The notes under the pieces were generated by a model that searched no databases, was not told the origin of the DNA, and saw only the letters and a list, made by a program, of their open reading frames with translations. Positions 11,181 to 12,598 of a DNA stretch of 64,000 nt are shown here, one piece after another (the stretch's first letter is position 1; each line of letters starts with the position of its first letter). This DNA comes from Eucalyptus grandis (Eukaryota > Streptophyta > Magnoliopsida > Myrtales > Myrtaceae): the NCBI RefSeq assembly GCF_016545825.1, contig NC_052618.1, positions 45,392,196 to 45,456,195 of the forward strand. The letters are read 5' to 3'. A program made the position numbers and the translations under genes.

Positions 11181-11540
11181 GGGTTGAAAGTGAAAGTTGT
11201 CAAAAAATGATGGAAAACCAATTCACTTGAGTGAGACAGAGGAGAGTGGAATTTCGTTTGTAGAGGTGAAATCTGGAGATCTATGAAGGAGGCCAAAAGC
11301 GAAGACAGCTCTCTGGGTCCCTACCGACACTGGTGTGCGAAAGCATTGGGGGCGAACGGAATTAGATACCCTGGTAGTCCATGCCGTAAACGATGAGTTA
11401 GATACCCTGGTAGTCCATGCCATAAATGATGAGTGTTCATCCTTGGTCTACGCAGATTAGGGGCCCAACTAACTAGTGAAACACTCCATCTTAGGAGTAC
11501 GGTCACAAGACCGAGACTCAAAGGAATTGACAGGGGCCTA
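11181..11540 (+). pseudogene. rrn18: Nuclear insertion of mitochondrial rrn18 (SSU rRNA) fragment
   Basis: The stretch follows the plant mitochondrial 18S rRNA: 'ccaattcacttgagtgagac', 'ctctctgggtccctaccgac', 'attagataccctggtagtcc', 'cggtcacaagaccgagactc' and 'aaggaattgacaggggcct' come in the order of that gene. Many C-to-T and G-to-A changes show it is not functional. Copy 2 of the unit (23,630-23,650) is uninterrupted here: 'ggacagg|agttttagagtc' there against 'gggttgaaag...gggcctagg|agtattagagtc' here. The rRNA piece therefore entered unit 1 after, or independent of, the duplication. A 36-bp piece is tandemly doubled at 11,362-11,433. Confidence 0.9.
11362..11433. repeat. 36-bp tandem duplication inside the rrn18 fragment
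   Basis: A 36-bp unit starting 'ttagataccctggtagtcc' and ending 'gatgag' occurs twice head to tail (11,362-11,397 and 11,398-11,433) with three differences. Normal rrn18 and the inverted arm at 12.5 kb have it once. It arose after the inverted duplication. Confidence 0.9.
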
Positions 11541-11587
11541 GGAGTATTAGAGTCAATGGTCAAAAGCTTTGATTGATAATGACGTGT

Positions 11588-12230
11588 CAATGGACATGTC
11601 GAATCCACGCGTTTCAAGCTCGCGTACTCCTGGGTTAAAGCACATGCGCTGCAGAAATGGACTAAGCAATTAGCGCGAGGATCCTCTTGCAGCTGGTATT
11701 GCTATCTTATCTTGGTGCGGTAGAAGTAGGAGTAGCAGCAGGCGCCCCCGGTCAACAAGGCGATCACCGTGTAAATAGATCCGTGCGCAGGTCATGCCGC
11801 AACAAAAACAATTATGTCGATCCTTCTTCAATTTGTGCGAACGCGATTGATTCTACTTGCAAACCGATCTCTGATCAGCAATCTCCGCAATTCGCCCAAA
11901 TGTGATTAAGGGGCCCCAAAATGACAAGCAACCAATGAGATTGACAGGATATCAACCTACTGAGCCATAGATAACACCTTTTCATCTCTGGATCCACTTA
12001 AAACTCGACATATTACCAAAGTGGTGTAAGATAATTCGATCACTAAATTCTTATAACCCCGCGACATTAGGCAATTGCAATTGGAGTCTTGAGTCTCTTA
12101 ACTGTTCGACTTTTCCCCATCGATTTCATCCAGTAGACGTGTACATGGGCATAACTATTCTATCAAGTGTTAATCCACCTCTAAACCAAATGGATTGCGA
12201 GGAAAATTCCAGAGGACTTACAAGTTAGAA
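11588..12230 (-). pseudogene. PLAC8 pseudogene in unit 1 (exon 3, exon 2, intron 1)
   Basis: The exon 3 relic (about 11,800-11,588, 213 nt like the intact genes) reads IYTVIALLTGGACCYSYFYR, then a nonsense codon, then QYQLQEDPRANCLVHFC and CALTQEYASL. An extra base shifts the frame before the end, and the donor is lost. The exon 2 relic is 11,932-11,861 (72 nt) and reads SFWGPLITFGRIAEIAD: the CPC motif is broken (C to G, C to L), the acceptor AG is lost and the donor is GC. Intron 1 and the exon 1 edge (to about 12,230) match gene A at 2941-3357 almost base for base. Exon 1 itself is missing; the sequence breaks straight into the inverted repeat. Intron 2 is almost gone, so a deletion or a processed-like rearrangement joined exons 3 and 2. 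Confidence 0.85.
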
Positions 12231-12245
12231 ATCAAAAGCTTTGAT

Positions 12246-12598
12246 TGATAAGACAGCAAGAGGACCCTCGCGCTGATTGCTTACTCCATTTCTGCAGCGA
12301 ATGTGCTTTGACCCAGGAGTACGCGAGCTTGAAGCGCGTGGATTCGACATGTCCATTGACACGTTATTATCAATCAAAGCTTTTGACCATTGATTCTAAT
12401 ATTCTCAGGCCCTGTCAATTCCTTTGAGTTTCGGTCTTGTGACCGTACTCCTTAGATGGAGTGTTTCACACGTTAGTTGGGCCCCTAATCTGCGTAGACC
12501 AAGGGCGAACACTCATCGTTTACAGCATGGACTATCAAGGTATCTAATCCTGTTCGCTCCGCATGCTTTCGCACACCAGCGTCGGTAGGGATTCAGAG
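12246..12598. repeat. Inverted copy of [PLAC8 exon 3 + rrn18]
   Basis: Read on the minus strand it repeats about 11,310-11,697. It begins with the middle of the rRNA piece (ccctaccgacgctggtgtgc), runs through 'gagaatattagaatcaatgg' and ends in the 3' half of PLAC8 exon 3. On the plus strand the PLAC8 part reads QEDPRADCLLHFCSECALTQ. The two arms flank a spacer of about 550 bp holding PLAC8 exon 2 and intron 1. Unit sequence resumes at about 12,600. Confidence 0.9.

What the first reader, a model, noticed from the sequence alone, without database searches (positions are those of the whole stretch)
11181..12598. Mitochondrial rrn18 fragment and PLAC8 exon 3 form a chimeric inverted duplication
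A 360-bp piece of plant mitochondrial SSU rRNA lies next to PLAC8 exon 3 in the nuclear array. The composite [rRNA + PLAC8 exon 3 part] occurs again inverted at 12,246-12,598, with PLAC8 exon 2/intron 1 as the loop. Unit 2 (23,630-23,650) has the uninterrupted junction, so order can be read: unit duplication, organelle insertion, inverted duplication, then a 36-bp tandem slip in one arm only. It records end-joining repair in several steps, and the palindrome may still be unstable.
Basis: partly seen in the sequence, partly recalled or inferred. Interest (0 to 1): 0.85.

Follow-up and report, generated by a model that had tools for sequence, protein, structure and literature searches.

The report
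Stacked DNA-repair scars in plant genes
A stretch of a plant chromosome keeps a readable record of several break-and-repair accidents, in which a gene fragment, a scrap of mitochondrial ribosomal DNA and then a flipped copy of both were pasted into one spot; the process is known, but here sister copies preserve the intermediate steps.

Summary
In detail: a mitochondrial-type rrn18 piece (about 11178-11539), 48 bp of native DNA and part of a PLAC8 exon 3 recur inverted at 12247-12598 (arms 321/353 = 90.9% alike).

Eight array units in the host assembly carry the target site and show intermediates. (1) A 643-bp PLAC8 gene fragment was pasted in with a 27-28 bp target duplication; its sequence is in 7 of 8 units. 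(2) rrn18 DNA entered 48 bp upstream with 1-2 bp microhomology; 2 of 8. (3) The composite was copied inverted just downstream, replacing 108 bp, with 5-bp and 4-bp microhomologies. (4) The unit was duplicated; sister S, 330 kb away, keeps both ends of the right arm but lost 277 bp at a 3-bp microhomology. (5) The 36-bp slip is private to the window's left arm. A 223-bp identical run between W and S suggests later conversion.

The signatures match known patch-type and microhomology-mediated break repair. It is a well-resolved new member of a known kind; no function is shown.

The parts
10703..11179 (+). native array sequence left of the rRNA insert, ending GGAT
   Evidence: matches unit 2 23150-23637 at 80% and 9 other array copies on C7
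11178..11539 (+). mitochondrial-type rrn18 fragment, left arm copy; AT (11178-11179) and T (11539) are shared with native DNA
   Evidence: Rfam; 89-90% to the mt-type reference L001; empty sites in unit 2 and units B-F
11359..11430 (+). 36-bp tandem slip, two copies, 92% alike
   Evidence: absent from sister S and from the right arm
11540..11587 (+). 48 bp of native DNA; 11560-11587 is the left copy of the patch's target duplication
   Evidence: matches unit 2 23639-23686 at 89.6%
11588..12230 (-). 643-bp PLAC8 gene fragment (exon 3 to intron 1 of a gene read on the - strand), a pseudogene patch
   Evidence: matches genes L042, L043, L044; Pfam PLAC8 on one exon-3 piece, E=7.1e-4, below the curated cut-off, none on the other piece
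12232..12251 (+). right copy of the patch's target duplication, 20 nt identical to 11560-11579; GATAA 12247-12251 is the inner microhomology
   Evidence: same position in units B, C and D
11311..11711 (+). left arm of the inverted duplication
12247..12598 (-). right arm: inverted copy of part of exon 3, the 48 bp and rRNA; AGAG 12595-12598 is the outer microhomology
   Evidence: shares derived states with the left arms
12595..13014 (+). native array sequence right of the structure
   Evidence: matches sister S, unit 2 and units B, C, D
23598..23720 (+). unit 2: site without rRNA and without patch, one copy of the target

Best explanation
A stack of break-repair scars, without shown function, in one unit of a tandem LRR/PLAC8 array. 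Step 1: a staggered break was filled with a 643-bp copy of a PLAC8 gene, duplicating 27-28 bp of target. Step 2: in one lineage a fragment of mitochondrial rrn18 DNA was joined into a second break 48 bp away with 1-2 bp of microhomology and no visible loss. Step 3: a third break just right of the patch was repaired by copying the nearby composite in reverse: the end TTGATTGATAA joined exon 3 at GATAA, synthesis ran through exon 3, the 48 bp and part of the rRNA, then joined native DNA at AGAG, replacing 108 bp. Step 4: the unit was duplicated (W and S); S lost 277 bp of the right arm, W gained a 36-bp slip, and a tract was probably homogenised between them. Shown: the state of each unit and the junction sequences. 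Inferred: breaks as triggers, the enzymes (synthesis-dependent strand annealing or microhomology-mediated break-induced replication), mitochondria as direct donor, and the conversion.
For: Of 8 units with the site, patch sequence is in 7 (both ends in W, S, B, D; right end only in C; left end only in E, F), rRNA in 2 and the inverted arm in 2, shortened in S. Units B, C and D keep 108 bp of native DNA where W has the right arm. Junctions: target duplication, GATAA, AGAG, GCT. The right arm shares with W-left and S-left states not seen in B, D or the PLAC8 genes, including a 3-bp deletion. rRNA copies are 87-90% to an mt-type reference and 74-82% to bacterial 16S.
Against: The mitochondrial genome is not in the assembly, so the donor was not seen; the reference L001 is a contig end of a bacterial MAG. 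In the rRNA part 2 shared-derived sites group the two W arms and 1 groups W-right with S-left, against 4 that group W-left with S-left. Unit 2 could be a reversion by recombination between the direct repeats, not a true empty site. A flank run of 157 bp is also identical between W and S, so the conversion is less certain than the rest.
Confidence: 0.88

Rival explanations
1. The two rRNA copies are two independent mitochondrial insertions in opposite orientation.
For: Mitochondrial insertions are common in plants, and the arms differ at 9% of sites.
Against: Both copies are followed by the same 48 bp and the same truncated exon 3; they share derived states not seen in other units.
Confidence: 0.02
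2. The inverted repeat is an assembly artefact.
For: Inverted repeats are hard to assemble, and no reads were available here.
Against: The arms differ at 32 of 353 sites and one has a private slip; S independently keeps both right-arm junctions.
Confidence: 0.02
3. The structure is a transposable element or a fragment captured by one (Pack-MULE or Helitron-like), not repair filler.
For: Target duplication at the patch and gene-fragment content; transposons do occur in the array.
Against: No terminal inverted repeats bound the patch in units B and D; the patch ends inside PLAC8 gene sequence; 27-28 bp is long for a transposon target duplication (recalled). The arms appear only after the inversion. 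No search of a transposon library was possible.
Confidence: 0.04
4. The inverted repeat is a working or incipient hairpin small-RNA locus that silences PLAC8 genes.
For: About 110 bp of PLAC8 exon 3 lies in the arms, with perfect runs up to 30-33 bp. Against gene L043, 7 of 100 left-arm 21-mers match exactly and 27 of 100 with at most one mismatch. Plant MIRNA genes can arise by inverted duplication of target genes (PMC3237417, passages).
Against: No expression data. Right-arm 21-mers have 0 of 93 exact matches in each of L042, L043 and L044. S lost most of the arm. The low W/S divergence covers the loop as well as one arm.
Confidence: 0.05

Closest known systems
Patch-type break repair that moves gene fragments in plants (Wicker et al. 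2010; Vaughn and Bennetzen 2014; seen here only as citations in PMC4423477 and PMC6097286)
   Same: Foreign gene fragment used as filler, with a duplicated target at its ends.
   Different: Here later events are stacked on the same spot and the series is kept in paralogous units.
NUMT insertion by end joining (PMC6215612, passages)
   Same: Organelle fragment joined with 1-2 bp microhomology and no visible loss.
   Different: Part of the insert was then copied again, inverted, together with nuclear gene sequence.
Proximal repair-mediated duplication and MM-BIR (PMC2671141, passages; PMC7407515, passages)
   Same: Donor and copy under 1 kb apart, microhomologies of 4-5 bp, loss of 108 bp at the acceptor.
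   Different: PMC2671141 treats vertebrates, lists deletions of 1-15 nt in its table, and does not use the word inverted; the pathway is inferred from junctions only.

Membership tests
NUMT | nuclear location of mitochondrial sequence | tested here: met
   rRNA lies inside a chromosomal gene array in two units; 87-90% to the mt-type reference against 74-82% to four bacterial 16S and 74% over 142 bp or 82% over 57 bp to two plastid-type pieces
NUMT | match to the host's own mitochondrial genome | not testable with these tools
   no intact rrn18 among 13 matches in the assembly
Patch-type break repair | copied filler of known origin at a site with an empty counterpart | tested here: met
   PLAC8 genes L042-L044 as relatives of the donor; unit 2 without the patch
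Patch-type break repair | duplicated target at the filler ends | tested here: met
   left TCAAAAG..GTGT copy and right copy in units B and D, right copy in C; in D a 28-nt match at 92.9%
Microhomology-mediated template switching | short microhomology at both joins of a templated copy | tested here: met
   GATAA (5 bp) and AGAG (4 bp); chance level not calculated
Hairpin small-RNA or young MIRNA locus | arms derived from a target gene | tested here: met
   exon 3 of PLAC8 in both arms
Hairpin small-RNA or young MIRNA locus | processed small RNAs | not testable with these tools
   no RNA data
PLAC8 family (PF04749) | PLAC8 domain in the patch | tested here: inconclusive
   related gene L043 exon 3 E=3.9e-17; patch piece of 37 aa E=7.1e-4, below the curated cut-off; piece of 29 aa no hit; DNA relation to PLAC8 genes is clear

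The most novel reading that the evidence does not exclude
The chimeric inverted repeat is an incipient hairpin small-RNA locus born from break repair: its PLAC8 exon-3 duplex acts on PLAC8 neighbours in the array, while mitochondrial rRNA forms the outer part of the same stem.
Probability: 0.05. Interest if true: 0.65.

Novelty: new member of a known kind. Interest (0 to 1): 0.35.

Why it matters
Repair scars are usually seen as single end products. Here one array keeps an apparently empty site, a patch-only state, a patch plus NUMT plus inverted-duplication state and a partly collapsed inverted repeat, so order, junction microhomology and the fate of an inverted duplication can be read from sequence alone. 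It also shows how an organelle scrap can become part of a gene-derived inverted repeat, the raw material proposed for new hairpin RNA genes.

Tried and rejected
Rejected: two independent NUMTs; bacterial or plastid rRNA; assembly error; right arm copied from another unit or from a PLAC8 gene. My own first reading of 12231-12256 as templated filler (note) was dropped once units B, C and D showed it to be the right copy of the patch's target duplication.

Led nowhere: three viral-contig pattern scans gave 0 hits; the one genome-contig scan gave one hit. The host species was not identified. Two papers wanted were not held. One search for NUMT with inverted duplication in plants returned one honey-bee paper; a broader one found 24 papers, 12 listed, of which I saw titles and abstract starts. 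I make no claim that such a structure is absent from print.

Full report
Observation. The window is a plant chromosome stretch with LRR and PLAC8 genes at C7:45392196-45456195 of a 616.5-Mb assembly in 36 contigs. Two SSU rRNA matches stand on opposite strands inside an inverted repeat. Refined arms are 11311-11711 and 12247-12598, loop about 11712-12246; identity 321/353, 22 transitions and 10 transversions, counted over 11311-11707 and 12246-12600. Of 4 inverted pairs of at least 80 nt reported in the window, 3 are this structure. The 36-bp tandem is in the left arm only.

Identity of the rRNA. A pattern scan of bacterial and archaeal genomes gave one hit, at the end of a Rhodobacteraceae MAG contig, L001. 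Its 16S is a chimera: the first 478 nt are 87% to Agrobacterium and Rhizobium, the rest 75-76%, and the change falls at the plant mitochondrial PNA-clamp sequence, position 484 of 842 (sequence and target in PMC6098832, passages). I take that part as an mt-type reference; its species is unknown. The window and sister copies are 87.4-90.1% to it, and 74.5-81.7% to E. coli, Agrobacterium, Rhizobium and Bacillus 16S. Among plasmid-borne 16S, 513 records match; 9 have a best place of 80-90% identity, and the 25 listed, ranked by coverage times identity, are 74.0-77.6%. Two plastid-type pieces of the same genome give 74% over 142 bp and 82% over 57 bp to the S copy; calling them plastid-type rests on a recalled motif. 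Of 13 matches to the reference in the assembly only those in W and S exceed 300 bp. C>T and G>A make up 15 of 18 differences from the reference in the right arm, 18 of 32 in the left and 21 of 33 in S, as expected of nuclear decay.

The array shows the steps. A search with the 48 bp plus PLAC8 block gave 18 matches, all on C7 at 44.70-45.42 Mb, from 15 candidates all scored. A search with the left native flank gave 33 matches; 10 are array copies on C7 at 44.92-45.42 Mb, of which 8 have the target site and 2 stop before it; 23 are weaker and elsewhere or farther along C7 (in unit F the match stops at 435 of 476, its junction is seen). The tool calls such counts lower bounds. The 8 units are W (window), S (L011), B (L037), C (L038), D (L039), E (L040), F (L041) and U2 (window 23.6 kb). 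Patch sequence is in 7: both ends in W, S, B, D, the right end only in C, the left end only in E and F. The rRNA is in 2, W and S. The inverted arm is in W and, shortened, in S.

Junctions. Patch: the left target copy is followed by PLAC8 sequence from CAATGG to CAAGTTGGAA, then the second target copy, which in B, C and D runs on into native DNA. U2 has one target copy. Genes L042 and L043 continue past the right patch end, and L043 and L044 past the left. The two target copies agree over 26 of 28 nt in D (92.9%), so the duplication is 27-28 bp only if such mismatches are allowed. rRNA: native GGAT/AGGAG is split, with AT and T shared. Right arm: the second target copy joins reverse-complemented exon 3 at GATAA; the rRNA end joins native DNA at AGAG; 108 bp of native DNA present in B, C and D is gone. 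A 12-bp deletion between GCAA repeats near the inner end is shared by W and S.

Order. The right arm contains the rRNA/native/patch composite, so it is later than both insertions. It shares with W-left and S-left states not seen in B, D or the PLAC8 genes, including a 3-bp deletion. S keeps both ends of the arm but lost 277 bp (GCT at both ends) and 6 bp, so the inversion predates the W/S duplication. In the part beyond the reference, 12 of 12 variable sites set W-right apart from identical W-left and S-left. In the rRNA part, sites where two copies share a state other than the reference group W-left with S-left 4 times, the two W arms twice and W-right with S-left once: mostly, not wholly, consistent. 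Seven differences from the reference are common to all three copies: either decay before the inversion or differences between L001 and the true donor. The 36-bp slip is absent from S and from the right arm.

Homogenised tract. W and S are identical for 223 bp from 11495, and differ at 12/553 sites over 11718-12281, against 22/268 in the rRNA before 11485, 63/1203 and 47/467 in the left flank and 25/413 in the right flank. The next longest identical run, 157 bp from 9878, lies in the flank, so runs of this kind are not unique. Against unit B the block is not slow: W-S 11/678 but W-B 61/678; flanks 73/866 and 104/866; Fisher P = 2e-4 with mean outgroup counts, which treats dependent counts as independent. 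Conversion between W and S is my reading.

Mechanism. Gene-fragment filler with target duplication fits patch-type break repair; SDSA filler repair in plants is described in PMC3706897 and PMC3445842 (passages); the primary papers were not held. The NUMT join fits end joining with short microhomology (PMC6215612, passages). The inverted arm fits a nearby template switch: 2-5 bp microhomology in MM-BIR and synthesis primed by direct or inverted repeats are described in PMC7407515 (passages), and proximal repair duplications with 2-9 nt microhomology in PMC2671141 (passages; there deletions in the table are 1-15 nt). Enzymes and triggers are inferred.

Function. None is shown. The PLAC8 piece has stops in all three frames of exon 3. 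A hairpin-RNA role is possible in principle (PMC3237417, passages), but right-arm 21-mers match none of the fetched PLAC8 genes L042-L044 exactly (0 of 93 each; left arm 7 of 100 in L043), and there are no RNA data.

Noticed in passing
35650-36541: A TIR element (arms 127 nt, 90%) interrupts a PLAC8 gene; the copy at 53467-53477 is the empty site, and GATACCAAG flanks both ends, a 9-bp duplication of Mutator type (type recalled).
   Followed up: partly
about 23708-24482: Unit 2 carries a separate insertion of about 0.78 kb just right of the target site, with ends GCGTTCGTTT and AAACGAAC that look like terminal inverted repeats.
   Followed up: no
L037:4945-9901 and L038:5012-8987: The right native flank (window 12595-13074) is repeated 5 times in unit B and 4 times in unit C at about 1.15-1.17 kb spacing within the fetched stretches; the window unit has one (spacing).
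   Followed up: no
39296-40627: A direct-repeat array with spacings of 47, 51, 98 and 149 nt.
   Followed up: no
L001:1-842: A Rhodobacteraceae MAG contig in the GTDB set ends in a chimeric 16S whose last part is mitochondrial-type, probably a misassembly.
   Followed up: partly
2948-3663: A PLAC8 copy with exons 1 and 2 (read by eye), 87% to the patch at 11814-12230; no exon 3 was matched left of 2948.
   Followed up: no
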